This document shows, piece by piece, positions 5,812 to 55,833 of a stretch of DNA of 64,000 nt. The notes beneath the pieces are model-generated. The model searched no databases. It was not told where the DNA came from and worked only from the letters and a program-made list of their open reading frames with translations. Positions within the stretch are counted from its first letter, which is position 1. The number at the start of each line of letters is the position of its first letter. Origin of the DNA: Vitis vinifera (taxonomy: Eukaryota > Streptophyta > Magnoliopsida > Vitales > Vitaceae); assembly GCF_030704535.1 (NCBI RefSeq), contig NC_081822.1:31517001-31581000 (forward strand). Direction: 5' to 3'. The position numbers and the translations under genes were made by a program.

Positions 5812-5850
5812 ATACCTTGCTGAGAAGAGTTGGAAACTAGAGATGTCTTC
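5812..5850 (-). other. Exon-end relic resembling the TNL 3' end
   Basis: The minus strand reads CTCTAG, TTTCCAACTCTT, then CTCAGCAAG|GTATGTCTTC. This echoes the end of the last TNL-A exon (CTCTAGTTTCCAAAGG at about 8090-8075, then AGCAAG|GTATGTCTTC at 8045-8056). The same second copy occurs downstream of TNL-B near 34,236-34,280. It may be an alternative 3' UTR exon or a remnant of another TNL 3' end. Confidence 0.4.
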
Positions 5851-6907: not shown

Positions 6908-7684
6908 GGGAAAATTGTGTTTTGGGCTCATTTGAGATAAAAATTAAGGTTTGGTTCATATGACTTACATAATTGATAGAAATAATATAAGGTATGAAAA
7001 GACCAAAATACCCATTGACCTTTCACATAAGTTTTTTTGGTCTTTATTGCACCACTATTCATGCAGTTATAATAATTCTATTTTAACCATATGAATTTTT
7101 CATTGTTTTTAAAAATTTTTTTATAAATAATTAAAAATCAACATTATTTTCTATTTTAAATAATAAATAAAGAAAAATTAAGTTGAAAAACTATTTTAAA
7201 AAATACTTTCTAAAAAAATGGTAATATAATTTATATTTTTTATATTTTCTTTTTGAAAAAACATTTAATTAAAAAATGAAATTAAAAATAAAAATTGAAA
7301 ACCTTGTACTATTTTTTTATATGAAAATAATAAAAAGAATTAAATTTCATTCATTGATTATCCATTAAATTTTATATGAAAAAATTTTATCCTGATTTAT
7401 AATAAGAGTAAAAAGATTTAATATCTTTAAAAAAAAAAGTTAGAAATGAGTAATACTTAATAGGAAATAGAAAAGGGAAAAAAAACACAAAAAAATAAAA
7501 ATAAAATTGAAATATACGCTCACTATATGCCTATGTAGGGGTAAAGGGTATTTTAGGGATTAATGAAGGATAATATCCTTCAACTTAATTTTTATACTTT
7601 ATTTAGGTTTTGACCTTAAATGTGCATGATATATAGATCTTTGGTCAATTTTGAGGTCATCTCACCTCAAAACACAATTCTCCC
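6908..7684. mobile_element. 777-bp TIR element, Mutator-like family
   Basis: The ends are inverted: GGGAAAATTGTGTTTTG at the left and CAAAACACAATTCTCCC at the right. The interior is AT-rich and non-coding and matches parts of 15,739-16,260 and 17,960-18,300. The TNL-B flank lacks it at the corresponding spot near 35,407-35,430, so it inserted after the TNL duplication or was lost from the other copy. The target duplication is unclear, so the superfamily is an inference from family members carrying subterminal repeats and an Ulp1-like remnant. Confidence 0.65.
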
Positions 7685-7914
7685 AAGATTCTAAACCATA
7701 AATCAATCATTTAAGAAAAGTATCATAATTGTTAAGATCTAAATATATAATTTTACATGAGAATACTCACCTTCCATTTTGCCTTTTAAAGTGCATGACT
7801 TTCTTTTAAAATCAATAATCTTCCAAATATAATACCTAAATAAGTCCTAAAATATTTTTTTTAGAAAAAAAAGAAAAAAAAAAGTTTTACCTTTAAGACA
7901 GTCCCAAGTTGCGG

Positions 7915-7944
7915 GATATATATATATATATGTGTGTGTGTGTG
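7915..7944. repeat. (AT)n(TG)n microsatellite
   Basis: An AT dinucleotide run passes directly into a TG run. The paralogous site near 35,687-35,700 has only a short AT run. It would be a polymorphic marker distinguishing the two gene copies. Confidence 0.9.
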
Positions 7945-8054
7945 AGTCGCTAGTATACGATTTTAAAATTTATTTAGATATTTCTTTTTTCAGTAATTCC
8001 ATCTAATAAATATATTAACCACTCGTGAATAAAAAAGAGAGAAGACATACCTTG

Positions 8055-24656: not shown

Positions 24657-27600
24657 TGTGGACCCGCATTTTTCACGTGTGTCCCCACTCAATCGACGAG
24701 ACTCGCTTTTCTATTTGTGAAAAATTAATTTTGGAAAAAGTCAGAGTCGCCACTTATTTTATTTTTATTTTAAAGGGAAAATAAAACAAGAAAGAAAAAC
24801 CCTAAAATGTGACTCCATAATTTTTGGAAAAAGCATGTCTTTGAAAAACCTGAGTCTAGGTCCGGGGATCAGGTTACTTACTGGGAAGGTACCTCTAGGA
24901 GGTAGCACCCTTCTAAGCCCTAAAGAGGTCTCTACTGACTAAGTTAAGGGAAACGTGGCAATTAAATGGTTGATCACGGATACCTAGGTAGGCTAGGTGA
25001 TTTCAAAAAATAGCATGCCAAATAAGAAAGTCTGATCTTAAGAGAGAACCAAAGTGCGTACCTGAACGGCTTCACAAGTGCTATCATGAAACATAAAAGT
25101 TAGTATAGAAATATATCACAACATGTGTTTTTGTCAAAGATAATCAAACAAGCATCAAATATATATATCAAGGCAATCAAATAGGATAGCAAGCATGGGC
25201 ATAGTACGCAATGACAATCATGTTCACGGGGTTTAGAAAGTGGGTATTAGGGAACGTACCTGGATAGCATATATAACTCATAGCGTGCTTCCGCATGAAC
25301 AAAGAATACAAAATCATCAATTATTACACACATCTTATGTACAATTCTAAAAAAATAGATATGATTGTAACAACCAACAAATGTGGTAGCAAAAATAAGT
25401 TTTAAAAAGATTTTTTTAAATTTTTTATGTAGGGGTTTCGCCAATTCCCCAATTGATACACACAAATCAAACCTGGAATTATCCCATTTATGTGGGACCA
25501 CAAGCTTGGATTCGTGTTTGATTTAAAACCAAAATTTTGGTTAAAAACTGAGAAAGATGCAAACCGATAAAAAAAAATGGTTGCATATTATTTTAAGAAA
25601 ATGAGATTCTGATTCTAAGAACTCTAAATGATTTTTTTTAAAAAAAATAGAATTTCTTAAAGGGGTCTTCGGAGAAAAAGGTTTTAATTTTAAAATAAAA
25701 GGAATTAATTTTTAAAATAATAAAACGTAGAAAACAAAATACCAATCAAAATAGAAGCGAAAAACACAAAATAAAGATTTAGAAAATCATGTCAATTAAA
25801 GTGGTGAGGGTAAGACCAACCTTCATGAGTTTCCAGTGTGGCCTTCAAAAAATAAGAATTTAACTAACAATCACTAAGGCACCAAATTTATGACTTCCTA
25901 ATCAAACAAACTAACAAAATATTACCCAAGACTAACATTTAGATTTCAAGAGACACATGAATTAAAATAAAAATAACCAATCAAAGATTAAAGCCAACAA
26001 ACTTAGCATATGGAGATAATAATATGGAATCAATTAAGGTAAATTAGCATTTTAACAAAATATGATAAATCAAAGACCAAAAACCAAAGTTCAACAATCT
26101 TGAAGGTATGAAAACAATGACATGCAATTAACTAGAGTGATTATCTAAAATTCCTAAAGCTCATACTAAGTTTCAATAGATCAAAGCCAAAATTACCATA
26201 CTTAAAACATGAAAATAATTACACGTGATTGACTAAATTAATTAAACAAAATTATAATCAACTGCAAAATTGGATATAAATGGATTAAATTCAAAGTTAA
26301 TGAAATAAAAAACACACAAACACATTCAATACTAAAAATAATTAATACTAGATTAAATTAAGGACATCATCATCATCTAATAAGATTGCCTAAACTATCA
26401 AATTGAAATCACAAATATATTTAAACTAAAGCAAATAAATAAATTAACAAAATAAAATTAAACTAAGATTGAAATTAAAAATATGGAATTTGTCTAAGAG
26501 GGTCAATCAGACAATTGAATTAAAATCATGAATGCATTTAGATTATAAAATAAATTAAAATCAAACTAAATTGAAATTAAATTCTACTTAATAAAATTAT
26601 TGGAATATTAAAAACTCAAACTTTATTTGATACAATCATTTAAACTAAAGAATTAAGATCCACGAATGCCTTTAAGTTAAAAATGAATTAAAATTAAAGT
26701 AATTGGAATTAAAAACACAAACTTTATTTAATGTGATTATTTAAACTAAAAAATGAATTAAAATCAAACTAATTAGGATCACTAACACATTCAAATTAAA
26801 TCATAAACGAAAACTAAGTTAATCTGAAATTAAAAAAAGTAAACTTTATCTCACAACTTATTTAAACTAAGGAATTGAAATCAGTAACGCATTCAAATTA
26901 AATTATAAACTAAAACTAAATTAATCCGAAAAAAAATAAACTTTATCTCTTAAATTGTTTAAACTAAGGAATTAAAATCACTAACATATTTAAATTAATA
27001 GCTAAATTAAAATTTAAACTAATTTGGGATTTTAAAAATATGAACTTTACCTATCAGGAATACTTAAACTAATGAATTAACATCTGAAACACATCTAAAC
27101 ATATAGGATAGATTAAAATTGAACTAAATTGAAATTAAAAATAAGAACTTTTCTAATATGAATAATTAAATTAAAATCACAAACATATGAGATAGATTAA
27201 AATTGAACTAAATTGAAATTAAAAACAAGAACTTTTCTAATATGAACAATTAAACTAACAAATTAAAATCATGAGCATATGGGATATATTAAAATTGAAC
27301 TAAATTGAAATTAAAAATAAGAACTTTTCTAATATGAACAATTAAACTAACGAATTAAAACGACAAACACTAAACATAAAAGGTAGATTAACAGTGAACT
27401 AAATCAAAATTAAAAATAAGGACTTTTATAATAGAAACAGTTAAATTAAAGAAAACTACAAACACATCTAAACATAAAAGATAAATTAAAACTAAATTGA
27501 ATTGGAATAAAAAAAAAAGGAACTTTATCTAATGGGATAAATTAAACTAAAGAATTAAAACCACAAACATATCCAAACTAAAAAAAAAAAAAATTAAAAC

Positions 27601-29015
27601 TCATTCGAAATTAAAACAAGAAATTTATTATATAGGATTAATTAAATCAAAGAACTAAAGTCATTAAAACACTCAAGACTAAAAAGGATGAATCAAAATG
27701 AAATCCAAATAAATTTGAAAGCGTACACTTACCTATAAATCGTTATTTATGGAGATTTTGTGGGCTGTTCCTCTCTTTTTTATGGTTATGTGTCAGCTCC
27801 TCAAAGTTCTTTGCGCGTCCTCTCAAAAGAATTGCTCTTGTGTTCTTTCTGCCTGAAGTCCCTTGCTCTCCTCCAAAGTTCCGCATGAAAATTATTTCCG
27901 CCTATTCCCCTCCGAAAAAGGTTCCCATATGCTCGGATTCTCTCCTTTATTTATAAGGCAACCCACTCCTTATGGAATATCTTATTTCCATTTTTTCCTA
28001 TGTGCGCGTGGATATGAGAAGCCCATTATGTGTGGCTCACTTGGAGATTTCCCCAAGGATGCAGTCGTATCTTGTTTGGTAAGTGATCAGATCCCCTTTA
28101 ATCTTCTTTCCATATGCTCTCGGATGTGCCTCAACCGTGATCTGCCCACTTTCTATATGCAGCCTGAATTCTTTCTTCAAACAAATCATATGCAGCCCAG
28201 ATTCCTTCTTAAAGTCGTGATCTGCCCATTTTCTATATGCAACCCGGATTCCTTCCAAGTTTCCCTATTTGGTCGTGATCTCCTCTCCTTGATGGCTTCA
28301 AGTCTCATGCAAAGTAAAAATAAAGTTGAAATAAGAAATCATGTAATTGGAAATGGAATAAAATAAAATAGAAAATTAAAGCATATAACCACAAAAATCC
28401 AAAATGTCAATTCATGGAATTAAAGAATAAATGAATAAGTGAGTAAATAAACAAATAAATTGATAAGGGTATAAAAATAAATATCAGACGTATGCAATTA
28501 GAAAAAATCAGGAAATTAAAGTAATGCAACGGATTATAATAATTTAATGTCAAACTCAAACCCTCAAAAATAAAAAATAAAATTCATTTCATGCAATAAA
28601 TAGTCAAGCCAATACTCATCCTATCTCAGAAAAGAAAGTAACCAAAATCAAGAACACGCCTAAGTGGGCTATGCCAAAAGAAGTGTCCAAGTGACCTATT
28701 CTGAAATATTGTCTAAGTAACCTAGGGTGAATGTGTGCAAGCTAGAAGGTGTCAAGTGCATCTAAATGGGCCTAAGGTGATGCCTAATGGGCCAAGTGTA
28801 TCTAAATGGGTCTAGGGTGTCTAAGTGGGCCTAAGTTTAAATTAGGGCTGCCAAAAGTCACAACGGGGTTAGATAAATCCCTCAACCAAAGTCTCCGAGG
28901 TGGCTCAAAAAAGGTAAGTAGTATGAGTAGCTATGGGCTACCAAGGAACTACTGTACAGTATCGAACAAGTATCTAATAGGACATGTGATAGGAGGACAA
29001 AATTGAGGGTCTACA
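24657..29015 (+). mobile_element. 4.36-kb LTR-like element (family TGTGGACCC...GGGTCTACA)
   Basis: Begins TGTGGACCCGCATTTTTCAC and ends GAGGGTCTACA. The flanks GAAAG and GGAAG fit a 5-bp target duplication with one change. The first 350 bp match the starts of two other elements (43,417 plus and 51,673 minus). The start is not repeated before the end, so no LTR pair is visible. A solo copy of a long LTR is the likeliest reading; a non-autonomous element is possible. The interior has an AT-rich minisatellite and, near 27,860-28,370, a GC-richer part with repeated TATATGCAGCC-like words. It is inserted in the transposon block. Confidence 0.7.
26400..27720. repeat. AT-rich minisatellite, 85-105-bp units
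   Basis: Degenerate units of the form AACTAAATTGAAATTAAAAA, AACTTTATCTAAT and a following AATTAAACTAA recur about a dozen times. They vary in length and share no codon periodicity. The array lies inside the LTR-like element. A different array occupies a comparable place in the related element at 49,160-50,560. Confidence 0.75.
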
Positions 29016-35100: not shown

Positions 35101-35887
35101 TTATCAACGATTAAGTAGCATATAATCTAAATAATCTATCTAGTATTTTTTTTTTCTCTCATACAAAATGATTTTTTTATTCTCATATAAAATCATTCTC
35201 TTAGGAGCTGATCAAAGCTTGTACTTTTGATTTTGATTTTTTAAAATTCCTAAATAAATAAAAGGATATTTTGCCCCAAGCCCACCGTGCTCCGTCACTA
35301 GCCCTATGTCATGCTCTTACCTTTTAGGTCGTTTATAGATGGATCCTACACTTTCTCACATTAAGTAGACCAAAGGGATAGCAAAATAATTACTAAATTA
35401 TAGGCGTTTCACGAAGTTTTTCTAAACCAAAAAATATATAATTTTACGTGAGAATATTCACCTTCCATTTTGCCCTCTAAATTGCATGACTTCCTTTTAA
35501 ATTCAATAATCTTCCAAATATAGTACCTAAATAAGTTCCAAAATATTTTTTTAGAGAAAAAAAGAAAAGAAAAAAAAAAAAGAGTTTTAACGTTAAGACC
35601 GACCCAAGGGATCTCAAAACTTCCTAAAATTTTGGGATAATTAAGGACACATGATTAAAATAAAATCATGAAAAGAAAATAACAAAATATATATATATAT
35701 ACCTGTCACTAAGATATGATTTTAAAAGTTATCTAGATATTTCTTTTTTCACTAATTCCATCTAATAAATATATTAACCACCGGTGAATAAAAAAGAGAG
35801 AAGACATACCTTGCTAGGGTTTAAATAAAGCTTTGATCTTTAGGAAACTAGAGAATCTTTAATTTCTTGGCTGGGTGATCTTCGCTA
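32126..35887. repeat. 3' flank of TNL-B, paralogous to 4289-8054
   Basis: Collinear with the TNL-A 3' flank from its first base after the transposon end at 32,125. It is AT-rich and non-coding. A poly-A run of about two dozen bases sits near 34,077-34,100. It lacks the 777-bp element seen in the A flank. The start of homology coincides with the end of the transposon block. Confidence 0.75.
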
Positions 35888-38800
35888 TCACCAAGGCTTC
35901 CTCTTGATGGCTGAGGCCAATGGATCTGATCTTGGGCGTACCAGAAATGCATCCCACAACCTTTTCACTTTAAAGCATGCGTTATCGCCACACTTAAAAG
36001 AGCCAACACCGATTGGAGTGTGGAAGTGAGCCTTAAAGTTGTTCCACCTTCTGGATCGATACTCACATGGAATGTTAATCTGAGGGAAATACGTGACCCA
36101 AATTGCTGGATCTGATGTGCTACCACTGTCGTAGCAGCATTTAGAATAAAAGCTTATCTTCTCCAGTTGTTGAGAGTGATCCCCATGGGATATCGTCCAT
36201 TCATAATGTGGAAGACTACCTTCTGCTATCTCACATTCATCATCATCAAGGGGAACATGATGGAAGAATAGAGCAAATCCCAAGAAGTTGTTATCTTCAT
36301 ACCAATTCATTGGGAGCTCTATTCCTACTTCACATCCCATTCTTTGATGGCGTACCCACTCTGGTATTCCATTCCTTCCTGGAACGACAAATCTCCAATC
36401 CTGAAGAAATTTCGGCCGCACAAAAATTTGTCATGTAAATCTCATGTTTTTTTAAAAAAGAAAAAAGAAAAAAGAAAAAATAATTATGCCATGAAACTGC
36501 TAACTGAATTGGTGATTTGAAGCATTTGAGCAGAGAAGACCAAAGTAGACTTGAGAAAGTTTCAGTTTCCAGGCATGGACAACCATGTGCACGTATCCAT
36601 CCTAGACTTGATGGAAGCTCTCCAATTTCTTCAAGCATCGGACAGTGATTCACGAAAAGGGTAAAGAGCCGAGAAAGTTGAATGATGCCAACAGGTACGC
36701 AACGAATATGGTTTCCGCTTAGGTTTAAAAATTTCAGTGAGGATAGGCACCATAAATCACTGGGGATTTCTCCTTCCATCAGATTGCAGCCACCTAGATC
36801 TAGATCTCTTAAGCAACAATGCAGGCTTCTCAAATTGTTGGGAAAATTGCGGAGCTTGGAACAGTTAGAAACACAAAGACGAACAAGACATGTCAAATTA
36901 CCAATGCTGTTGGGAAGACTCACAAGCTTCTCACATTTGTTCAATTGCAAATGCCAAAGTCCTCTTAAATGTTCAATTGAAGATGGAAGCTCTGATATAT
37001 CTGTTCCACATAAATTAAGTTCTTCCAAATGTTCCATATCCTCCATAATCTCCGGAAAAGCCTCTACACTTGAACAACTATCGAGACCAAGGGTTTTGAG
37101 GGATTTCAACCCACAAATTGTGTTTGGAAGACTCCTCAAGTTTCTGCACTCTTCCAAATTTAAGGTACTAAGCCTGGTGAGATGACCTATTGTGTTTGGA
37201 AGACTCCTCAAGTTTCTACAGTTTTTCAAACATAAGTAATCAAGTTGGGTGAGATGACTTATTGAGCAAGGTAATCCTTTAATAGCAACACCGTCTAGAA
37301 AGAGATAGCGTAGACTCCCCATACTGTTTTGGATCTCAGGAAACTTTCAAAATTTAAGCAACCACTGAGAGAAAGAGTATTAAGGGCCTCTAAGCACCCA
37401 AATGCTGTTAGGGAGTTCCTTAATAGCTATATTGTCTAAAGAAAGTCTCTTCAAGTATTTCTTTTTCCATTGAATCTCTGGGAATTTCTGAAAGTTTGAG
37501 CAATCTGAGAGTCCAAGAGTTTTAAGAGATTCCAAATAACCAACACTGTCTGGGAGTTCTTTAATACCACTCCTATATAAATGAAGCTCCCTTAAAAGTC
37601 TCATATTGGTAAATACATCTGAAAATTTCTCAAACTTTGAACATTCTCTAAGAGAAAGAATTTCGAGAGAAGTCAAGGACCCAATGCTATTTGGGAGTTC
37701 CTTAATAGCAGTCCAATCTAAAGAAAGCTTCTTCAAACATTTCATATTCCCTCTTATCTCTGGAAATTTCTCAAATTTTGAGCAATATGAGAGATCAAGA
37801 ATTTCAAGACATTCCAAATACCCAATGCTACTTGGGAGTTCTTTAATAACACTCACACATAAATAAAGCTCCCTTAAATGTTCCATATAGGTAAATATAT
37901 CTGGAAATTTCTCAATCTTTGAACATCCTTTTAAATGAAGCTCCCTCAAAAATTTCATATTCTCATGGATCTCAGGAAATTTCTCCAAGTTTGAACAATT
38001 TGAGAGATTAAGGACTTCAAGAGATGCTAAATACACAATGCTACTTGGTAGTTCTTTAATCCCAATCTTGTTTAAATAAAGCTCCTTCAAAAGTTCCATG
38101 TTTCCATGGATTACCGAAAACTTCTTCAAGTTTTGACATTGATTAAGATAAAGAACTTAAAGAGATTCAAACTTCTTGCTAGTTGGGAAACTTTGGAGCT
38201 GTTCACATCTTCCCAAATTCAAGTAAGTCAATCTTTTCAGATTGCCAATAGATGAATGAAGTTTACTCAAACTTGTACAACCTTCAAGATTCAATCTCTC
38301 CAAATTTGGCATGCTTGAGAATTTTGGCATTTTGACAAGCTATTTTGAGTTACTTAGATCAATGCCTTTTAATTCTCCAAGACACTGTAACAGAAGATAT
38401 TCTTTTAATAAAAAAAATTCTTCAACTTGAAAATTATTATAAAGAGAAAAAACATTAAATAATGATCATACCTTATTCCCTTTCCAAAGTTGTTTTATGT
38501 TACTAGACTTCAAGTTGATATCAATAAGGCACTCTCCATAAAAGTTAGAAGGTAAAGACCTCAAAGTGCATCTTTGCCAATGAAGATATCTCAAATTATG
38601 AGGAAATTCGAAGTCTTTAGGAAGAAGCACTTTATACTCCTCTCTAGTCAAACCATCATGATCATTGCAATAGATTTTAAGCAACCTAAGTTTTTTCATC
38701 TTGGCAAACACTTTTGTACTTAACTGTATTTCTTTTAATTTAGACAAGTCTAAAGATATGGTTTGAATATTATTCATCACCTAGAAAAAAATAATGAAAA

Positions 38801-40822
38801 ATAAGGGAACAACACAAGATAAAAATCCTAACTACAATTATACAGACAATTAACTACTAAAAAATTATTATAAATATTTAAATAACTATACTTAGGCATT
38901 TAATTCATACCTCTTGTCTAGAAAATGCTTCATAAATATCATCTACATCCCACAATCTACTCCATTTGCAGGGTTTTCCAGGACATTCTTCACGAACAAT
39001 TGGCCAACCCATTTCTTGTATCAAGTCATGCATTTGTATGACGTTGTCTAGGATAGTTACTAGACATCTATCACAGAGATCTTTTATGTTGATTTCTGGA
39101 TATAACTCGCAACCATCTAATGTTCTTGATAAGAAATCTTTGCAGTCACCTTTGAAAAAACACGCAATGTCCAAGAAAACCTCCTTTTGAGAGTGATCAA
39201 GCCCATCATAACTTATTCTAAGCACATCATTAATTTCCTTCTTAGGGTTTTTTTTTCAATTTAACCAATGCGCTTTTCCATTCTTCTATTGTCATGCCTT
39301 GAAGAGAAGAACCTAGAACTTTAAGGGCCAAAGGGAGACCTTGAGCATAATGTCCCATGCGATTTGAGAGGTCCACATAATCTTCTTTAGGACCATTTTG
39401 TTTAAAGGCATGTTGGCTGAAGAGTTGAAGAGCTTCCTCATAATGTAATTCTATAACCTTATATGATATATTCACTCTATACTCAACCAATAGATGTTGG
39501 TCTCTAGTTGTAATGATAATTGTACTTCTTGGACCAAACCATTTAGGACTTCCAGCCACTGACTCTAATTGCTGCAACTGATCCACATCATCAATTACAA
39601 TAAGAATCTTTTTTGAGCTAAGTCTGGCCTTTATTATGTTGATTCCTTTATTGATATTGCTAAACTCTACATCATTCCCCACTGTATCATGAAGAAGTTG
39701 TTGTTGTAGTTGAAGTTGACAACCCTTGTTGAATGTCTCTCTAACATCTTGAAGAAAGCTAGCACCAATGAATTGATATTGGATCTCATTATAAACAATC
39801 TTGGCAATGGTAGTTTTACCAATTCCACCAGGTCCATAGATCCCAACCACACGAATGTCATTCAAGTCACTACTTAACAATGATTTTAGTTCTTTTAGGC
39901 GAAAATCCATCTCAACTACATAATCATTACTGTGCAAAAGCTTAGAATTCATTGATCTTTTAAAAATCTGGTGAACAATTTCCTTAATATGCTTTGACTC
40001 ATACCTGCCAATTATAAAGTACAATTTAACACTTCATGAGTCATAATGAATTGCAAGAGATAACAAATATTAAGTAAATTTAGTGATATTTACTTGATTT
40101 TGTCAATATAACCAAAGTAATAGGATGTAAAAAGTATTAGAAGCTAAGAACCCAATATATTGAGCATTTTACGGATAATAAGAAGGCAACAAGTTTTGAG
40201 CCAAGTATTAATAAGATCACAAAGTAAGCTTTACTATTCAAAATTATTAACTTGTTAAGTCATGATTTAAGACAACTAAATCCTTACAACTTAATTAAAT
40301 CAAAAGCACAAATTAAGGAAGTTGAAGTTACCCATCATTCACATGGAAACCACTTAGATTGCTTGCTTCATTCAAGGAATCCCTCCACCTTTGCACTTTT
40401 TTCGCATCTACGTTTCTTTCATGAATGAAAAATGCCTCTCCGAAGCTCCCTGTTTGCTTTCGCACATCAGAAGGATCCACGTGGGAGAACACCGGAAAGA
40501 CTATTTGTTCCATTTCTTCCCTGCACTCCATGATCTTCGCTAACTCATCCAAACACCACTTCGATTGAGCATAGTTTTTTGAGAACACAACTATGGAAAT
40601 TCTTGATTCTTCAATAGTTTTCAAAAGTTCTGATTTGATCTCCTCTCCTCTTTCAAGTTAGTCGTCTCTGAAAGTCTTAATCCCCATCCCATGCAAATTT
40701 ACGAATAAATGATCCGTAAAATTGTTGCAGGTGTCTTCACCTCTAAAACTCAAGAACACTTCGAACTCATATTTACGGACTGAGGTAGAAGAAGAGGAGG
40801 GTTTTTGGGTAGAGGAAGCCAT
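35888..40822 (-). pseudogene. TNL pseudogene, TNL-B (paralogue of TNL-A)
   Basis: Same exon plan as TNL-A: 40,822-40,332; 40,004-38,911; 38,780-38,472; 38,394-36,505; then the C-JID part to 35,888. Breaks relative to A: TAA for CAA in the TIR (40,658-40,660); one extra T in a run, T9 against T8, in NB-ARC (39,248-39,256), giving TAA at 39,242-39,244; TAG for CAA at the start of the LRR exon (38,340-38,342); TAA for GAA (38,157-38,159); one extra base near 37,400 and one missing near 37,345; last-intron donor GT to TT (36,502-36,503) and acceptor AG to GG (36,416-36,417); one extra base near 35,960. P-loop GIYGPGGIGKTT, kinase-2, GLPLAL, FLDIACFF and MHD remain readable. It cannot make a full receptor; short TIR or NBS products are possible but unsupported. 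Confidence 0.93.
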
Positions 40823-43230: not shown

Positions 43231-44328
43231 ACAATTGTAGACCCTTTTTTTTTTTTAAAACCAAAGTTTTTTTTCTTCTTCTTTTTTTATTTTTTACCAC
43301 CCGGAAGGAGTTGAAGGGCATTTCATTTGAAGTGGGGGACATCTTCCATGAAGCTCCATGCATGGACATGTGGCAAACATCACCATCTCGCCATGGTGGT
43401 GGTTGAAGATGGTGACTATGGACCCCGCATTTCGCTCAATGCGTTCCCACTCGATGGCGAAACTCGCTTTTTATTTTAAAAAATTGATTTTTACTGTTTG
43501 AAAAATGACTTGGAGTCGCCACTTATTTTTATTTTTATTTTTAAAGGGTAAACAAAATAAGAAAGAAAACCCTAAGTGTGACTCCTTATTTTGGAAAAGG
43601 TGGTCTACGAAAAACCGAATCGGGTTCGGGGGTCAGGTTACTTATCGGGAAGGTACGGTAAAGACCGTAGCACCCCTCTAAGTCCCTAAAAATGGGTCTC
43701 TACTAATAAAATGAAGCAATCATGACAATTGATTAATCGAGCATGGATACCAAATGAATATAACTCAAAACAAAATAACTAAATGAACAGAAGAGGCAAA
43801 GAATGTCCCTGAAGTGATGAACCAGTTTAGTTCAAGGGAAAACAAATGTTAGCAATCAAACACAAAATAATAGCATGCATGCCATAGTGTGGAATAAATC
43901 AATCATGCATAGCTATCAACCAATCAACCAATCAAGGAATTAGAAAATCACATATGTCGAGCCCTACCAAAGCCCGATTTATTTTAGCACAAATTGATTT
44001 CATGAATTCCATTATTTGAAATTATGAAATTTATTTATGCTTATTTAAAAAAACATTTAAAAATTAAGGAAGGTGTGAAAATTGCTTGCCGGGAAGAAAG
44101 TGGCAGCAAAATTTTAATGAAAATGAAGATCTTTGGTGAACTAAAGCTTTAAGAAAGAATGAGGAGTTGTGGGATTAAAATTATTTGAAAACATGATTTT
44201 TGAAAATCAGTTTTTGAAGGCAATGAGGAAGAGTAAGGAATGAGATGCATGTGCTTTTGAGGTGGCCATGCAGGACCTATGAAGAAAGACACGTGGGAAT
44301 TGGATGGACAAGTGCTGGAAGTGAGTAC

Positions 44329-44480
44329 TGGGGGTTTAATTGAATGCAGATTTATAATCTCAGCACCGACTCTGTCCTTTGCAAGAATATCAGCAGCCTT
44401 GAGTGCGAGGCCTCCCATTCTTTTGAGAAGACTGTGATAGTCACATTCCTTCTTTCTCTCTCAGTCTTGGCTTTCCCTCT
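44329..44480 (-). pseudogene. Captured fragment of pyruvate dehydrogenase E1-beta
   Basis: The minus strand reads GKAKTERERRNVTITVFSK, then, in a shifted frame, GGLALKAADILAKDRVGAEI and INLHSIKPP. This matches the plant E1-beta segment that typically reads [49 protein letters not shown]. The frameshift lies just after FSK. Only about 50 codons remain, so no enzyme can be made. The intact E1-beta forms part of the mitochondrial or plastid PDH complex. Assignment is by recognised family sequence. Confidence 0.75.
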
Positions 44481-44789
44481 TCGGTGAATATGGGGACAGC
44501 ATTTTCGACCCAGAGCAAGAGTCAGACCAGGCTGTATAACTCAGGGAGTGCTGGGCGCCAACTCTAACCGCAGCACCATTTGGTTCTCAACAAAACGATA
44601 GGTACGGATATCCCATCAGCAGACATGTAACTTGATTTTTGCAGCAGAATCAGGTTTGCTCCCCGCAACTAGGTGGGAGATCTTCACCGAGGCAGGGGCT
44701 TGTTCAGCAACAGCCTCATGTGTTCCATGCTGAATAGGAAGGTAGGGTTTTCCTTCCACATGAATCTCATTTTGAAATATTGGCCGAAT

Positions 44790-45094
44790 CAGTTGCTGTT
44801 GAATTTTGTTATTGTACATGAAGATACAGTGTCTTCATGCCATGGATGATCAGATATGCGGCATTCGGGTTGAGAATACCACCCAGAACATGAGGCAAAT
44901 TCCTAATTGTTGAGACCAACTTTTCAGAACTACTAATGCAACCTGCAATTACATCATTGTGTCCTGCAATATATTTTATTGCAGAATGCGGCACGAGAAC
45001 AGCCCCAAGAGAAAGGATCTTCTGGTTGAGAGGTGTTGCAAATGTACTGTCTATGCAGACTAGTGCTCCTTTCCTGTGCAGAACATGCATTAAT
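44790..45094 (-). pseudogene. Captured fragment of cystathionine gamma-synthase
   Basis: After a conserved acceptor (CCCCTTCAG at 45,095) the minus strand reads HRKGALVCIDSTFATPLNQK, then VLVPHSAIKYIAGHNDVIAG and NLPHVLGGILNPNAAYLIIH. This is the PLP-lysine region of plant cystathionine gamma-synthase (methionine synthesis, plastid). The family has HSATK with the PLP lysine; here it is HSAIK, with the lysine kept. A TAA at 44,809-44,811 replaces a Gln codon and QNSTA follows it. Similarity then ends. The intron border shows capture from genomic DNA. Confidence 0.8.
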
Positions 45095-45148
45095 CTGAAG
45101 GGGAGACATGTTTATCAAGTTATTCTTGTTCTCATTACCAATCTGCTG

Positions 45149-45545
45149 TCAATCATCATCAATGATTAGGAACTTAGGAGGCGCGCCCCCCATGTAGCCA
45201 CTGCCAACAGCACCATATGGTGCAATAATATAGCTGCTGCATTCAAGATCTGCATCAACAACATCAGTTTTGTGTCTTCGGAAATGAAAATCTGTTGGGC
45301 CGTTATAAAGTTCTGGTACAAAGTCATGAACAGAATCCCAGTCACTGTTTAGAGCATCCAATCTGCTGGAAACCTTACAATATCTGCTCCAGATGCATAT
45401 CGACTAAGGAAAGTGTCTTTAGTCCCCTCAAAAACTCAACATCATCAGACATGCAGCTTGTCTTGGCAATGCGTTTAATCGCAATAACTGACCCACATCT
45501 TCTAAGTTGAACATAACACTCTCAAACTTTTATCAGTGCCATTCA
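45149..45545 (-). pseudogene. Captured fragment, gene not recognised (1)
   Basis: An open minus-strand piece, 45,149-45,361, includes NGPTDFHFRRHKTDVVDADL and ECSSYIIAPYGAVGSGYMGG. Upstream DNA continues in a shifted frame (SRYASGADIVRFPADW). Its composition is like real coding sequence and unlike the AT-rich surroundings. I do not recognise the family. It lies directly upstream of the CGS fragment, on the same strand. Confidence 0.4.
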
Positions 45546-45645
45546 GAGACAATGAAAGAGGAGCAAAGAGAGGATCACTTGCCATTGAAATGGAGGGAAG
45601 AACTATGTTGGACATTAGTGACATGACTGGTACCAAAAGCACCAT

Positions 45646-46480
45646 TTACTCATTCCATTGAATTCTGTGCGTGCAAACTATCAGAAGACTTACCAACAAT
45701 AAAATCTGCCCATTTTTAAAGGTGCCATATTGATCAAACCTGGAAGGTGCCTTCTGGAGACTCATACGAGAATGCTCAGCTGTAGAAGAAACTGAATCAT
45801 TGTCACAGGAGTCATATAGAAGATTATCATCATCACAAGTCCCGAGGCCTTTTGTCCCAAAATGGCGTAACTTGGTAGTTGGTGAATGCACAAGGCTTGT
45901 TGGCTGGTCTACACTGGATGAGTCTCTATTATATGGTTAACAGTATGTGTCAAATATATCAGTCATGAGCACGTTTTGAAGGTCCAGCTGAGTATTGTCT
46001 ACCATCTATGACTTCATCACCGTCACGATCAATGACAGTTTCTTCAATGCTATCAGCTTACCGTATCCTTAAGTGTGGCCTATCATCTGAGCTGGCACCT
46101 ATTTCCTAACTCCACTTACAAGGACTTGGGCCCCATGGTTCACATGACGTTGCACGATCACCAACCTCACTACCAGAAGGCTGCCCTATCATTAGATTCC
46201 TTCCCATATCAGCATCATGCATATTTTCAGACATTGCTGTCCAGTTTAAGTGGAATAATTGGGGGAACCCTTCCTCTATCAGAATTCATTGGTTCGGCAT
46301 CAGAATGACATTTACCACCTGGAACATGCACGGATGGTAACAATGGAGATGCTTTATTTGTTGCATTCTCTGCTTTTGCATTGGAAGTTTCAACTCCTCT
46401 AGCACGGGTACAGGATGACCTCTTAGGAGCTAAAGATATATTAAATTCCACAAGCTTTCCTTCAGAAGGCTGACCCAAAG
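45646..46480 (-). pseudogene. Captured fragment, gene not recognised (2)
   Basis: Two open minus-strand pieces (46,227-46,478 and 45,646-45,891) and an interrupted stretch between them have codon-like composition. Examples are GKLVEFNISLAPKRSSCT, DSIEETVIDRDGDEVIDG and SSVDQPTSLVHSPTTKLRHF. It is rich in Ser, Asp and Arg, like a disordered nuclear protein. Stops TAG and TAA interrupt it. I cannot name the gene. Position and strand suggest capture together with the PDH and CGS pieces. Confidence 0.4.
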
Positions 46481-49159
46481 GTGTATCTGAACCTTATTTG
46501 GCATGACTAACAAGCTGTCACTTTCACACATATTCTAAGCATCTTCCCAGAGGCTTAACAAAAATGGGATCCTCAGGTTTACAGAGGAGGGAAGAGAAAC
46601 CCGGCTTAGCATTCAGAAAAGTTTGTTGCTGTCGACATCTTCACCATCCCGAGTCCTTGGGACTGTCGGTGCAAGTGTGGAACTACCAGAAGAGTTGTTA
46701 CTCAGACCTAGAATTCTCAACCGTATGAAGAGTGACCCTCATGAAACTTTCTCAGAATCACCCCCAAATAGGATGGCCAACCCAAATGAGATCCTCACAC
46801 CCCGGACTTACCAGAAACAGGGAAATGAACAAAAGAAGATGGAAGCAAGGCAAGGACTGAAGAAATAGCCCAAGGAAAATCAAGTAAATCATGAACGTAT
46901 AGAGCCTCATTTCAAGTGACATCCATGGGCCAATGCAGGTGGAATCCAAAGGAAGCAAGAGTGTTTTTTTAAAATCAAATTCAGTGATGAGTACATATTC
47001 AAATCATTCATAAAACAGAGGAATGCTCAAGTTGTTCATAGACATATCCAAAAGAGCCAGACTAGAATCAGGCAAAAAAAATGCATAAAAATGGTCTTAG
47101 ATTCCACAAACATAAATAGTATCTGATGTCCACATTCAAGCATCCAAATGAACCCAAAATCAGCAAGAAACAGGATAGAACAGTCTGAAACGGGAAATGT
47201 AAAGCGTGCTGAAATCATACTTGGACCAAAACCACAAGCTCCTCCTCTGCTCAGCTAGAAACGCCTCTTTCTCCTTTCTCACTCTCTTTGGAACCCCAGG
47301 AACCTGTAAACTTCTTTTATGTCTCAAGCAACCTACGCTCCTTTCATCACCGTCTGCTCCTCTCTCTCTCAAAGAATACCTCCATTTTCTTTCCACAGCT
47401 TTAACTCTCTCTATCTTTCTCATTCTCCTCTGTCTAGACCCCCCTCTCTCAAGAAAGAAAATCCCCCCTCCAAAAAAATGTCACCCTGCCAGTAACGAAT
47501 AAAAAAACCTCACCCTACGCACCTCCTCGTCTTTGTCCCTTACTTTTTCCTCCACCCCTCCGTAGCCAAAAGCACCACGCCTTTTTGCCAGAATCCTCTC
47601 CCTCTCTCATACGCTCCTCCAGAACAGAAACGTGCTCCTCTCCTGAAGATTCGTCCTAGGTGTCGCTCCTTGATAGCTCCTCAAAAAGCACTATCTGATT
47701 CCATAGCAGCCAACTAAAAGACACCATGTGGTCTCCTAGGGTCGCGACACTTGGCAAAACAAGCTGCATGAAAGTGAGGCCCAAATGGGGGTCTACAGTG
47801 ACATATTTGCTGAATCATTCCCAGTAGAGCTGGTGGAGGCTTGGTGGAGAACAAAACTAGTTGGAGAGAAGGACGGAGGGGGCGGTTGTTGGCGAAAAAG
47901 CTGGAGAGGGGATTCAGAAAGGATGAACGAGCTGGAGTGGTGAAGACCGGAACTGGAGGGAGGGATGTTGGCAGATTTTGGAAGAAACTATGGGATTGAG
48001 TGCTTGAAACCAAGCAATCCTTGCAGGAGGATGACTGTGGGACGGCAGGACCGACCCCATTATCTTCCCCATCGACCAATAGACAATTGAGGTATTTATG
48101 TATTGTTTGTTTCTTTGTTATATGTTTGCTCTTTAATATGGATAATTGATTTAGTGTACCAAGATAGGGTTTTGTTTCTGACATGAAAGAATGAATGTTC
48201 GCAACTGAATCAGGACAGAATTGTTACATCAGATGCTTTGTTTATAAATAGTTTAGGTGTTCAGTTTTGTAGGGAGAATAACATCATAGATTCATAGATT
48301 CACCTTATTGAGTGCACTTGACAATTAAGTTCTCTGTTCTCTTTTTCTTTCCTCGACTGGCATCAGAAAACACACAAAGTTTCATTGTTTTCTTTTGCTT
48401 CCAAAAAATAAAAATTTCCGTTGCGAGAAAATGGAACCAGAAACCAGACGGTAGAATCAAGAAAATAGTGCTAGAGATCCTCAAAATTAAGCGCGGACAT
48501 GGACGAGATGACCGAGTTCATAGATTCGAAAAATAGTTTCCCAAAAAAAAACTCGGAATCAACCTCTTCGTGCCGGACTAACTACAAGCGCTTCGTCCGC
48601 TAGGTCGTCGAGACCTTCCTCCAGTCCACCGAAGATCTTAGATGAGAACCGGAACCAAAACTGGAACCTGATCGAAAGAAGGCGAACACCGAAGCAACTG
48701 AACGGGAACCGAAAGAATAGAGGGCGGTCGGTGGATTCATTCGGGAAACAACGCAGATCAGAGCCAGATAGTGCAGTCCAGAAATCGATGGGCGGTCATG
48801 GTGGTTCCACAGTCCATACCCATAAGAAATTGTTGGAAGATGGCAAGATATGACTTGTATCCACCAGCCAGCTGCATGTCCAATAGAATGACTTAGTGGA
48901 TCACTCATGCATCACCTTGGATAGGGACATGTATCTTATGGCCCATGTCCACCAGCCCGTCCCTCCATTTTCAACCATTGGACATGATGGTCAGCTATAT
49001 GGGCCTCAGCACCACCAGTGTCCAGCCCATTGCTTTCCACTACCTACAACCAGCATCCCGGGCCTCATTTTGCTTGGCCACCTTTGGTCTGCAATCCCAA
49101 CTGTCACACCTCATTTATTTATTCATTTTCTTTTATTATTTCTTTGTGTTCTGATATCC

Positions 49160-50528
49160 AAGTTTAATCTTTTCAAAATTTCAATTTTCACATTTATTTA
49201 TTTAATCATTATTATTTTCGCTATAATTATTATTCTATTTATTTATTTAAAAAAAATTCATCTTTAAATAAATCTTCAAAATTCCGATTTCCAAATTTAA
49301 TTTCTAATTTCCAAAATTCTAATTTTCATATTTGTTTATTTAATCATTATTATTTTCGTTATTATTATTGTATTTATATATTTTTTAAAATTTTCATCTT
49401 TAAATAATTCTTCAAATTTTCCAAATTTAATTTCCAATTTCCAAAATTCCAATTTTAACATTTATTTATTTAATCATTATTATTTTTGTTATTATTATTA
49501 TTCTATTTATTTATTTTCAAAATTTTCATCTTTAAATAACTCTTCAAAATTCCGATTTCCAAATTTAATCCCCAATTTCTAAAATTCCAATTTTCACATT
49601 TATTTATTTAATCATTGTTATTTTTGTTATTATTATTACTCTATTTATTTATTTTTAAAATTTCATCATAGTTTTTCAAAATTCCAATTTTCACCTTTAT
49701 TTATTTAATCATTATTATTTTCATTATAATTATTATTCCATTTATTTATTTAAAAAAATTCCATCTTTAAATAAAAAATCAAAATTCCTATTTCTAAATT
49801 TAATTTCCAATTTCCAAAATTCCAATTTTTACATTTATTTATTTAATCATTATTATTTTCGTTATTATTATTATTATTTTTATTTATTTTTAAAATTTCA
49901 TCTTTAAATAATTCTTCAAAATTCTGATTTCCAAATTTAATTTCCAATTTCCAAAATTCCAATTTTAACATTTATTTATTTAATCATTATTATTTTCGTT
50001 TTTATTATTATTCTATTTATTTATTTTCAAAAATTCCATCTTTAAATAACTCTTCAAAATTCCAATTTCCAAATTTAATCCCCAATTTCTAAAATTCCAA
50101 TTTTCACATTTATCTATTTAATCATTGTTATTTTTGTTATTATTATTATTCTATTTATTTATTTATTTATTTTTAAAATTTCATCTTTAAATAATTTTTC
50201 AAAATTCCAATTTTCACCTTTATTTATTTAATCATTATTATTTTCTTTATAATTATTATTCTATTTATTTATTTTTAAAAAATTCATCTTTAAATAAATA
50301 TTCAAAATTCCTATTTCCAAATTTAATTTCCAATTTCCAAAATTCCAACTTTCACATTTATTTATTTAATCATTATTATTTTATTTATTTATTTATTTTT
50401 AAAATTTCATCTTTAAATAATTCTTCAAAATTCCAATTTCTAAATTTAATCCCCAATTTCTGAAATTCCAATTTTCCAATTTTCGAATTTAATTTCCAAA
50501 ATTCCAATCTTCACATTTATTTATTATT

Positions 50529-50560
<32 letters not shown>
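49160..50560. repeat. AT-rich minisatellite, about 11 units of 105-140 bp
   Basis: Units contain CATTTATTTATTTAATCATT, ATTATTTTCG, CATCTTTAAATAA and TTCCAAATTTAATTTCCAAT. The array continues as a degenerate TTCCAATTTTC repeat to about 50,870. It lies inside the outer LTR-like element and has no coding meaning; ORFs read through it are artefacts. Confidence 0.85.
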
Positions 50561-50563
<3 letters not shown>

Positions 50564-51678
50564 TTTATTTATTTATTTTTAAAAATTCCATCTTCAAACA
50601 ATTTCCAAGGTTCCAATTTTCATAATTTAATTTTCATAGTTCCAATTCTCAAATAATTTTCCAAAGTTCCGATCCTTAAATTTAATTTTCGAAATCCCAA
50701 TTCTTAAATCTAATTTTCAAAACTTCAATTTTCAAATGATTTTCAAAGCTCCAATTTATTAAATTCGACTTTTCAAAATTCCAATTTTCAAATAATTTTC
50801 GAGACTTCAATTTTCGAATAAATTTTAAAAATTCAGTTTTCTTTCGAACAGTTTTAATTCCACTCCAGTTTTCAGATATTTCTTAATTCTACCACTTTTC
50901 ATCCTTTATTAGAGCTTTTAGACCGCCAAAAATCTTGATTTTAATAATCCTGCTGCCTTTCTCATTTTGGTATGCACTTGTACAAATTTTCTTCGATTCT
51001 CAAATAATTTTATGTTTCTCTTGATTTTAAATGAGCAATAATGATTTTTTTCATAATTCCAAAATAATGGAATTTGTGAGACTAATTCATGCAAGATCAA
51101 TTGGGCTTTGGTGGGGGTCCTACATATGAGTTTTCTCTTTTGATTATCAATTGTCATGCTTAATGAGGATTGTTTGATCTTTGTCCTGATCTTTGATATG
51201 CATGTGATAATTTTATACTTGAGCTAACCTTGTTTCCGTAATAGCGCACTATTACTTGCTGCTAAGGTACGATCTCACTTCCACTTTGCTTATTCTTATG
51301 CATGATTTGCTTTATTATTTGATTATTTCATTGGTATCCATTGATTTCCTTATCAATTGTCACACTTGTCTCACCTTATTTAGTAGAGACCTTATTATAG
51401 GGCTTAGAGGGATGCTATGACTCACCACCGTACCTTTCCAATAGGTAACCTGACCCTCGGACTCGATTTTGGTTTTCCACATACTGTCTTTTCCAAATAA
51501 GGAGTCACACTTAGGGTTTTCTTTCTTATTTTGTTTTCCCTTTAAAAATAAAATAAAAATAAGTGGTGACTCCAAGTCTTTTTCTAAAAAAAAAAAAATC
51601 ATTTTTTCACAAATAAATTAAAAGCGAGTCACGTCGTTGAGTGGGAACGCACGTGAAAAATGCGGGATCCACAACCAT

Positions 51679-53452: not shown

Positions 53453-53814
53453 GTCAAAGAAAAGGATTTCAAATAGTGTTTCACTTAATAATATGAAAGC
53501 AATTATTTTAAAAGAAAAATAAAAAAAAATGAATGACTTCTTGTACAACTACTCTTTGCAAATATATAAAATTTGTCTAATAATTTATACCAAATATTAC
53601 AACAAAAGGTGAAATGGAAGTCAAGAGTGTAAGAGAAAAAGATTTCAAATAGTGCGTCATTCAATAATATGAAAGTAATTATTTTAAAAGGAAAAAAAAG
53701 TGAATGAAAGTAATTATTTTAAAAGAAAAATAAAATATACGAATGTACAACCACTCTTTACATATATATCTATATATATTTACTTTTGTATTATGCAGAA
53801 ATCATTGTCAGCAT
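53453..53814. repeat. 5' flank of gypsy element: about 175-bp tandem repeat
   Basis: Two copies of a unit with AAGATTTCAAATAGTG, TTAATAATATGAAAG and CTTCTTGTACAACTACTCTT lie in tandem, with a partial third near 53,700. The same array is at 1-300. The last five bases, AGCAT, stand where copy 1 has GGCAT. Confidence 0.75.
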
Positions 53815-54273
53815 TGTGGGCATCCCCGTAAATGGGGATAACGGGCCTACCCAAAGAACTATTCGTTGAGTTGGGCCAGTTTGGGCCATGATTAAAAGCC
53901 CATCTAGCCTAATGGCCTAGTTGACTTAAATAGCCCAATAGGTAAAGTGGGAAATAGAACGTGGGAGAACAGTCCACAAGGAGTAGTGGAGGTAGTTAAT
54001 GCTTGGGGCGGTAACCGCTTGAAGTGGCTAAAAAGTGGCCCCACGATCTCCATGCTTATTGGTAGCTGAAAGGTATATGAATACAATTGGAAAGTCCAAA
54101 AATAAAAATAAAAATTGTAGCATGAGAAACATTACATTTTCTAGAAAACCCCAACTAACTTAATCATCAGATGAGGTGATCCTAGGGTAAAACTTAGTGA
54201 GCCTTATGTGGTAGGTATAAGGAAGCGCACGACAAGGAGATGACTATTGCTCAAGAAATTCTCAGCTCCAACA
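53815..54273 (+). repeat. 5' LTR of gypsy element
   Basis: 459 bp, TGTGGGCA to CCAACA. It is closer to the copy-1 LTR (325-784) than to its own 3' LTR, as expected if duplication followed insertion. Confidence 0.9.
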
Positions 54274-54294
54274 AGTGGCGCTGTCTATGGGAAA
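54274..54294 (+). other. Primer-binding-site region
   Basis: AGTGGCGCTGTCTATGGGAA directly follows the 5' LTR. It is the expected place for tRNA priming. The tRNA was not identified. Confidence 0.65.
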
Positions 54295-54320
54295 ATTCTA
54301 CATTAATGTAACATTTTTAC

Positions 54321-55660
54321 TTGGAGCTGAAAAGTATACCATTTTTGTTTGGAGTTGGAAGCTTCACAATGGGAGATAGTCAACTGCGGGATTCAATTAG
54401 TACAATTGCTCCTCGAAGGGCCGTGACACTAGAGTTTATTCTTGAGGGTTTCGAAATGCGCCAAGTAGAGCAGGAGAGAAGAATTGAATCCATCATTGCC
54501 TAGACAAAGTTTCTAAGGCAAGAGAATGCCTTGTCGCAGACACAACTCAAAGATCAGCGTGCTCGCATTCAAACATTGTATTAGTCAACAAGTAATCTTG
54601 ATCACTTATGCCATCAGGACAATAATGACATGGTGGAACCTTTAGATCATGTAGTTCATTTTGGTCAAGTTCCCCACATCATTTTAAGTTTTCATGGAGG
54701 ATGTCGCCCATTTGACCTCAAGATTCCAAGAAGTCTAGTCATTGAAGGCATAGATGAGGCGAACAACACTCCCGGTAGGGACCCAAGCCCCTAGTGTATT
54801 CAAATCCTTGTAGCCAACAACAAATGAGGTTGCCCCATGTGGAGGCTGTAGGAAGGCTGACTCAGCCCCTATCTTCGGTAGCTTGGCTCCCACATGGGTG
54901 ATCAAATGAGTTGTCTCTAGGAGCCACAACTCGCCACCTGAATGATATGATGATAACACCATTCGCCCAACATGTTTTGATGTATGAACCCCTAAGAGGA
55001 TATACCATTCCTAAGCTCTTTATGTATGACGGAACATATGACCTCTTCGATCATCTGATGCGTTATCGACAAATGATGATGCTTGATATCGATAATGATG
55101 AGTTTCTATGCAAAGTCTTCTCGGCTAGTCTCTAAGGAACTACCCTAGCCTGGTTCCACCGATATCTCCCTAATTCCGTTCACTCCTTTAGGGAGATGTC
55201 AGAAGTCTTTGTAGCTCATATTTGTGCTCAACAAGGTAGAAGTTCAATATCAACAGCCTTCAAAATCCGAAGAAGATAGAAAGTGAGACTTTACGCCAAT
55301 TCATGCACATGTTTGACCAAGCAATGCTCCAAGTAGAAACATGCAGTATGGATGCTTTGCTATAAGCCTTCAAGCCTAGCATTGGGTCAAGGACCCCATT
55401 TTTTGAATCTCTCTCCAAGAAGCCATCAAAGATGATTGATGAATTGTTTAGAAGAGTTAACAAGTATGCTATGTTGGAAGAGGACTTGTAGGCTGCAACA
55501 AGTCCCGTCTTAGTATCAACGCAAGTGGCACAGGCAAAAAAGATACAGGGAATAAACGCCAGGGCTCGGGGAACCCTTCATAGGGCAAAAAGCCGCGTAG
55601 GGGTGATGAGGGCCAAAGACCACCCCGACAATGAGGGACAAAGACCACCCCGACAATGAA
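54321..55660 (+). pseudogene. gag remnant of gypsy element
   Basis: Nucleocapsid/capsid polyprotein remnant. Open pieces are 54,321-54,503 (GDSQLRDSISTIAPRRAVTL) and 54,911-55,135 (PLRGYTIPKLFMYDGTYDLF, DEFLCKVFSASL). The rest continues across stops and frame changes to a basic region. A 25-bp tandem duplication at about 55,607-55,656 (GAGGGCCAAAGACCACCCCG repeated) shifts the frame and is absent from copy 1. It would form virus-like particles in an active element; here it is dead. Confidence 0.85.
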
Positions 55661-55833
55661 CCTCACTCAATCTTACCTATAGATAGTTACTTCTAATTAT
55701 GACCGACTTACTCGGCTTTAGGTGGCCCTTCGCTTTTAGGGATGAACCGACATAACAAGACCAAACGCAGCATTGCGAATACCATAAAGAGTATGGGAAC
55801 ACCATTGATGAGTGTCGACACCTCCATTATCTA

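What the first reader, a model, noticed from the sequence alone, without database searches (positions are those of the whole stretch)
43417..47797. LTR-like element that captured several host genes
A 4.38-kb element with a perfect GTGAC target duplication carries minus-strand fragments of PDH E1-beta, cystathionine gamma-synthase and at least one unknown gene. Two relatives in the window have minisatellites in the comparable place. Genes from different pathways side by side in one element, with an intron acceptor retained, mean successive or composite capture of genomic DNA. Capture is well known for Pack-MULEs and Helitrons, and less so for an element with TGT...ACA ends and a 5-bp duplication.
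Basis: partly seen in the sequence, partly recalled or inferred. Interest (0 to 1): 0.8.

Follow-up and report, generated by a model that had tools for sequence, protein, structure and literature searches.

The report
LTR carrying many host mRNA fragments
A stretch of grapevine-like DNA turns out to be the leftover end (a solo LTR) of a retrotransposon, about half of it stitched together from spliced pieces of at least eight different plant genes, which suggests that such elements can pick up and carry many host messenger RNAs at once.

Summary
The finding is real and more striking than claimed. Window 43417-47797 (target duplication GTGAC/GTGAC) is a 4.38-kb solo LTR, on the minus strand, of a multicopy gag-bearing LTR retrotransposon family whose other copies show paired LTRs, 5-bp duplications, primer-binding site and polypurine tract. 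Its 3' 0.63 kb is ordinary LTR. About 2.0 of the other 3.7 kb traces to host genes elsewhere in the genome, in the element's sense direction: pyruvate dehydrogenase E1-beta, cystathionine gamma-synthase, a PHD gene, a C3HC/NIPA gene, a kinase and three more. Four parents have introns in the captured part; all eight testable introns are absent, so spliced mRNA was captured, not genomic DNA. The four junctions with both parents known carry 5-14 nt of microhomology, as expected of reverse-transcriptase template switching. A second insertion (C7) has the same mosaic, interior 95-97% identical; related copies carry overlapping combinations. A young LTR-bounded relative (LTRs differ at 2 of 2,743 bases) carries an AIM24 fragment in both LTRs. 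Capture by LTR elements is known (maize Bs1, retroduplication); a mosaic of this many genes inside an LTR was not found in five paper searches.

The parts
43412..43416 (.). target-site duplication GTGAC
47798..47802 (.). target-site duplication GTGAC
43417..47797 (-). solo LTR, 5' end TGTAGACCCCC at 47797, 3' end ...GGGGTCCATA at 43417
   Evidence: same type of ends, TSD length and 3' segment as LTR pairs and solo LTRs elsewhere in the genome
43417..44050 (-). 3' segment of the LTR shared by the family: 39 other places at 83-88% in a capped search (plus one partial at 77%)
44331..44650 (-). pyruvate dehydrogenase E1-beta mRNA fragment, parts of six parent exons; four introns absent, a fifth lost inside an internal deletion
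   Evidence: parent C1:26697612-26699977, 85-90%
44637..44802 (-). fragment of a gene of unknown function (parent C13:27910435-27910599, inside a 624-codon open frame), 92%
44794..45078 (-). cystathionine gamma-synthase mRNA fragment, three exons, two introns absent, 92-93%
   Evidence: parent C14:29968427-29969142
45202..45371 (-). fragment of an arginine-rich protein gene (P0076 type; parent C13:2037156-2037325), 92%
45363..45406 (-). 44-bp match to C11:3143736-3143779, 95%; not otherwise identified
45414..45529 (-). protein-kinase fragment (parent type C15:17829180-17829382; PK_Tyr_Ser-Thr) with an 85-nt internal deletion at a 3-nt repeat (TGG)
45530..45811 (-). segment X, no parent resolved; present at 73-88% in other genomic places
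45812..45921 (-). fragment of a gene at C10:2385126-2385429 (B-box-like, name recalled; no Pfam match), one intron absent, 92-94%
45912..46242 (-). C3HC zinc finger/NIPA-like gene fragment (parent C10:11922567-11922899), 93%
46235..46413 (-). PHD-finger/PF23121 gene fragment, two exons of C17:8538182-8541242, a 2.9-kb GT-AG intron absent, 90-92%
46406..46720 (-). segment 90-91% identical to three places on C17 (8635213, 8646434, 8717951); gene unnamed
46712..47293 (-). 5' leader of the LTR; related sequence at 72-87% in tens of other places, 15 of them on C18:18.9-19.9 Mb; origin unresolved
24657..29015 (-). relative B: solo LTR of the same family with minisatellites, flanks GAAAG/GGAAG (4 of 5)
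49045..51673 (+). relative C: LTR of the same family with minisatellites; 5' end judged by eye, TSD not resolved

Best explanation
The element is a solo LTR of a Gypsy-type LTR retrotransposon family. Much of its 5' (U3-side) part consists of a chain of spliced host mRNA fragments. Most likely, during reverse transcription inside virus-like particles, the enzyme jumped repeatedly from the element's RNA to co-packaged host mRNAs and between those mRNAs at short stretches of shared sequence, and finally back to the element. Because the U3 of both new LTRs is copied from one RNA (established knowledge), the mosaic became part of the LTR and moved with it; later jumps and recombination between such LTRs added and swapped pieces. 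LTR-LTR recombination then left the solo LTR. Shown: solo-LTR anatomy, host gene origin, sense orientation, intron loss, junction microhomology, a second independent insertion and relatives with overlapping but different gene sets. Inferred: the order of events, particle packaging and the exact strand-transfer step.
For: Solo LTR: ends, 5-bp TSD and 3' segment match relatives; 16 of 20 fetched stretches could be delimited. They include pairs with shared TSDs (GCATC, ATTGT, ATAAT; a fourth, CGAAC) and solo LTRs with perfect TSDs (CATTA, GTATG, CAAAC, ACTAC; GTTTA). Orientation: a PBS follows 4 of 10 LTRs read (TGGCGACTCC in three, TGGCAACTCC in one), a tract ending GGGCATATT precedes 5 of 10, and the gag ORF (PF03732) runs the same way. 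mRNA origin: eight GT-AG introns in four parents (CGS 2, PDHB 4, PHD 1, C10 gene 1) are absent. Template switching: microhomology of 5, 6, 9 and 14 nt at the 4 of 4 junctions with both parents known; random junctions between eight parental loci reach 5 nt in 0.66%. Mobility as a unit: C7 copy, interior 95-97% identical in three queries, flanks CACGC/CACGG. Host fragment inside both LTRs of LTR-bounded relatives: AIM24 in the C6 and the C7:697-718 kb elements.
Against: No LTR-bounded element with this very mosaic in both LTRs was found: only two copies with most of it, both solo LTRs, and the first 0.37 kb of this LTR hardly aligns to the C7 copy. The 5' leader (46.7-47.3 kb) is multicopy and was not traced to an mRNA; it may be DNA-derived. 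About 0.9 kb of the LTR is unplaced. No reverse transcriptase or integrase was scanned, so the lineage within Gypsy is untested. The closest AIM24 relative (C5, 91% and 96%) already lacks the introns of the C2 gene, so that example does not by itself prove mRNA capture. The C3HC, arginine-rich and C13 fragments match contiguous genomic sequence and are silent on RNA versus DNA. At the C10 gene the stretch just after the join is divergent.
Confidence: 0.82

Rival explanations
1. Composite capture of genomic DNA by the element (Pack-MULE- or Helitron-like).
For: Several unlinked genes in one element; the 5' leader resembles multicopy genomic sequence and was not shown to be mRNA.
Against: Eight introns lost at GT-AG sites in four genes; ends, TSD and family are those of LTR retrotransposons.
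Confidence: 0.05
2. The mosaic arose first as a chimeric transcript or retrogene assembled elsewhere (for example by LINE-type template jumping) and was then transduced in one step by the LTR element.
For: Part of the chain (C3HC end - C10 gene - X - kinase) occurs in other places at 73-88%, and most of those were not read far enough to say whether they are LTRs.
Against: Where flanks were read (C5:2309-2319 kb; C5:2276-2284 kb) mosaic parts are followed by this family's LTR 3' segment; different copies hold different subsets, which suggests repeated events.
Confidence: 0.1
3. The unit is not a solo LTR but a defective complementary DNA with one hybrid end region that integrated directly, having lost the internal part and one LTR during reverse transcription.
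For: Only solo-like copies of this mosaic were found in this genome.
Against: Length is within the family's LTR range of 1.8-4.6 kb; solo LTRs are common among the copies read; a host fragment does sit inside both LTRs of LTR-bounded relatives.
Confidence: 0.12

Closest known systems
Maize Bs1 LTR retrotransposon
   Same: LTR retrotransposon carrying fragments of several unlinked host genes (three: ATPase, xylan endohydrolase, beta-1,3-glucanase; PMC13317346 section 4, read)
   Different: Three genes there, against at least eight here; that the Bs1 segments are internal rather than in the LTR is recalled; no set of alternative mosaics is described in what I read
LTR-retrotransposon retroduplication (pepper NLRs and others; PMC5664825, passages; rice and sorghum PMC3726574, passages)
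   Same: Captured genes lie within the element; in the pepper study spliced mRNA captured and introns lost
   Different: The passages describe genes inside LTR-bounded elements; here many short fragments are fused inside the LTR itself
LTR change by abnormal template switching (BARE-2; Veju; PMC13317346 section 4)
   Same: Template switching swaps in new sequence; in BARE-2 within the LTR
   Different: The donor there is another retroelement or unknown DNA; here it is many host mRNAs
Pack-MULEs and Helitrons
   Same: Carry fragments of several host genes
   Different: DNA-level capture (recalled to keep introns) and different ends; not met here

Membership tests
LTR retrotransposon (solo LTR) | TG...CA ends and 5-bp target duplication without internal LTRs | tested here: met
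   TGTAGACC...GGGGTCCATA; the last two bases are TA rather than CA in this copy, while the relatives end in CA
LTR retrotransposon (solo LTR) | relatives bounded by two near-identical LTRs, with PBS and PPT | tested here: met
   LTR pair with 2 mismatches in 2,743 bases, TSD GCATC
Ty3/Gypsy, Tat-type lineage | gag of retrotransposon type | tested here: met
   PF03732 E 6.9e-13 in the C6 relative
Ty3/Gypsy, Tat-type lineage | order and phylogeny of reverse transcriptase, RNase H and integrase | not tested
   only one gag-bearing ORF was scanned; the lineage is recalled from PBS and LTR style
RNA-mediated gene capture (retroduplication) | introns of the parent absent in the captured copy | tested here: met
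   8 introns in 4 genes:
RNA-mediated gene capture (retroduplication) | poly(A) tail at the end of the captured copy | tested here: inconclusive
   none at the four gene-gene junctions read, which lie inside genes; an A-tract follows the AIM24 fragment in a relative
Pack-MULE | terminal inverted repeats with 9-11 bp target duplication (recalled) | tested here: not met
   5-bp duplication, LTR family
Helitron | no target duplication, insertion at AT, 3' hairpin and CTRR (recalled) | tested here: not met
   perfect 5-bp duplication; hairpin not looked for

The most novel reading that the evidence does not exclude
This retrotransposon family renews the 5' part of its own LTRs by repeatedly copying spliced host mRNAs into it, so that the LTR is a modular, recombining archive of host transcripts and a source of new U3 sequences, with subfamilies defined by which mRNAs they hold and at least one still young (AIM24 subfamily).
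Probability: 0.4. Interest if true: 0.8.

Novelty: new variant of a known kind. Interest (0 to 1): 0.62.

Why it matters
Gene capture by LTR elements is known, but the captured sequence is normally treated as internal cargo. Here it makes up about half of an LTR, the part that normally holds the promoter and is duplicated at each transposition. The chain of fragments keeps a readable record of apparent template switches (which mRNAs, at which bases), so it gives a natural assay of how plant reverse transcriptases jump and which host mRNAs reach them. It also bears on annotation: one public Vitis 'Nucleolin 2' protein appears to be an ORF read from such a mosaic.

Tried and rejected
Rejected: genomic-DNA capture (introns are missing); Pack-MULE and Helitron (wrong ends and duplication); ordinary chromosomal gene order (the parents lie at separate places on C1, C10, C13, C14, C15 and C17); chance similarity (best E-value per traced fragment between 1e-10 and 1e-136). 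Early on I took the plus strand as the element's direction; PBS, PPT and gag showed it is the reverse. I first thought one short piece was a site-1 protease fragment; this was recalled and weak (Pfam E 0.12) and is not claimed. I could not place segment X, the 5' leader, bases 45079-45201 or the first half-kilobase of the LTR. Five paper searches (the last returned none) listed no paper that I recognised as describing multi-gene mRNA mosaics inside LTRs; I read one section of one paper and passages of four, and most subscription papers are not in that library.

Results against my reading: the AIM24 example has an intronless relative on C5 that is closer than the C2 gene; no LTR-bounded copy of this mosaic was found; the 5' ends of the partial mosaics on C5 and C15 were not found, so nucleolin and P450 are not shown to be inside the LTR. 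In a partial control 20 of 65 ORFs of at least 70 codons, from 11 of 12 other LTRs of the family (none from L023), were scanned, and one LTR (L012) gave a host domain above its cut-off, so captured genes are not shown to be the rule in the family. This copy ends in TA, not CA.

Full report
What is there. It has no terminal repeats of its own. A search of the genome that holds the window (495.6 Mb; window = C18:31517001-31581000) with 639 bases from its left end returned 41 matches, 40 of them at 83-100% identity including the element itself; 40 of 4,871 candidates were scored, so this is a lower bound. I fetched 20 stretches around such matches. The far end of the repeat could be delimited in 16 of 20 (L018, L022, L024 and L026 were dropped). 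The units are 1.8-4.6 kb long and share, with small changes, the ends TGTAGACC...GGGGTCCACA (read in true orientation). Some come in pairs 11-18 kb apart in direct orientation with one shared 5-bp duplication outside: C6 GCATC, C6 ATTGT, C9 ATAAT, C7 CGAAC. Others are single with perfect duplications: CATTA, GTATG, CAAAC, ACTAC, GTTTA on C11. These are LTRs and solo LTRs.

Orientation. Reading the family as the reverse of the window's plus strand, 4 of 10 LTRs are followed by AAATGGC(G/A)ACTCC, a primer-binding site (complementary to an arginine tRNA, recalled), 5 of 10 are preceded by a tract ending GGGCATATT, and a 1,283-codon ORF with a retrotransposon gag domain runs in that direction.

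The captured genes. Only the last 0.63 kb (43417-44050) aligns to ordinary LTRs of the family. About 2.0 of the other 3.7 kb is traced to other loci. In order 5' to 3' of the element: a leader related to tens of genomic places; a segment 90-91% identical to three C17 places; two exons of a PHD-finger gene on C17; a piece of a C3HC/NIPA-like gene on C10, 93%; two exons of another C10 gene; segment X; a kinase piece; a 44-bp match to C11; a piece of an arginine-rich protein gene on C13, 92%; three exons of cystathionine gamma-synthase, C14; a piece of an uncharacterised C13 gene, 92%; and parts of six exons of pyruvate dehydrogenase E1-beta, C1. I count eight genes, leaving out the leader, the C17 segment, X and the 44-bp match.

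RNA, not DNA. In four of these genes the captured part spans introns of the parent: two in CGS, four in PDHB (a fifth falls inside an internal deletion), one of 2.9 kb in the PHD gene, one in the C10 gene. All eight are missing, and each has GT-AG borders in the parent. At the first PDHB join two bases differ from the expected splice, and at the C10 gene the sequence just after the join diverges.

Template switching. At the four junctions where both parents are known the two parents share GGACA (5), TCATCC (6), TCAACAGCA (9) and ATTCTGCTGCAAAA (14), and the element is identical there. Random junctions between eight parental loci share 0.7 nt on average and 5 or more in 0.66% of 200,000 trials. 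A fifth junction (C17 segment to PHD) shares CTGTA, but the C17 segment may not be the true parent. The kinase piece has lost 85 nt between two copies of TGG.

Other copies. C7:15253138 to about 15268407 is a second solo LTR with the same mosaic, 95-97% identical in the three interior queries, interrupted by a nested insertion of about 11.1 kb, of which 1.5 kb was read and looks Copia-like (recalled). Its flanks are CACGC/CACGG (4 of 5), its 5' end reads TGAAGACTCC, and the first 0.37 kb of the window copy hardly aligns to it. Other copies share only parts. Three near-identical C5 copies (L035-L037) hold, between the leader and the LTR 3' segment, a CGS piece with an amino-acid permease (PF13906, E 1e-22) and a ribosomal L11-like piece (PF00673, E 0.002, below cut-off). 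A C15 copy (L039) holds CGS, permease (E 7e-5, below cut-off) and P450 (E 1e-6); its 5' end was not found. C5:2309000-2319000 holds a long nucleolin piece (RRM, E 2.5e-18) upstream of the same C3HC - C10 gene - X - kinase chain and an LTR 3' segment; its ORFs match the Vitis vinifera protein named Nucleolin 2, P0080, but the 5' end of that LTR was not found. GH28 and M18-peptidase pieces lie upstream of the C5 L035 copy and may be outside its LTR.

Is it in the LTR of LTR-bounded elements? A C6 element, whose LTRs differ at 2 of 2,743 aligned bases plus 11 gap columns, and a C7 element (TSD CGAAC) carry an AIM24 fragment (PF01987, E 1.3e-11 in L012) in both LTRs; a C11 solo LTR has it too. So host fragments do sit within LTRs that have recently transposed. 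The C2 AIM24 gene has two introns missing from the LTR copy, but a closer C5 relative lacks them too, so this case is not proof of mRNA capture.

Relation to what is known. LTR elements with captured genes are established: Bs1 with three genes and template-switch-driven LTR changes such as BARE-2 (PMC13317346, section 4 read), retroduplication in pepper and other plants (PMC5664825, passages), surveys in rice and sorghum (PMC3726574, passages), and a review noting that transduced sequences are usually sense (PMC7264820, passages). Retand elements have a long region between pol and the 3' LTR whose origin is open (PMC11963269, passages). What differs here is the number of genes fused (at least eight), their place inside the LTR, the base-level record of the switches, and several copies with overlapping mosaics. 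I therefore call it a new variant of a known kind.

Limits. The species is inferred to be a Vitis from protein matches. Lineage beyond gag was not tested. The origin of the leader and of segment X is open. Counts from the genome search are lower bounds.

Noticed in passing
window 43511-43525; L012 9257-9271: The LTR carries a second primer-binding-site-like motif (TGGCGACTCCAAGTC) about 100 bases before its 3' end, resembling the real one just after the LTR; possibly an old LTR boundary.
   Followed up: no
P0080 (Vitis vinifera 'Nucleolin 2') and C5:2309000-2319000: A public protein record appears to be an ORF read from a mosaic of gene fragments next to an LTR 3' segment rather than a true gene.
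   Followed up: partly
C5 at about 2.07, 2.17 and 2.28 Mb: The mosaic copies on C5 recur every 108 kb, nearly identical, which suggests a recent large tandem duplication or an assembly duplication.
   Followed up: no
window 4563-12343 and 33025-40129; 1-2188 and 53453-55697: Large direct duplications (83-88%) within the window, with 141-bp tandem units inside the first pair.
   Followed up: no
C18:18.9-19.9 Mb: A cluster of 15 places related to the leader of this LTR (capped list); what gene family or repeat this is was not established.
   Followed up: partly
L013 382-1128: An LTR next to a partial copy of its own 3' end, so that its apparent primer-binding site is LTR sequence.
   Followed up: no
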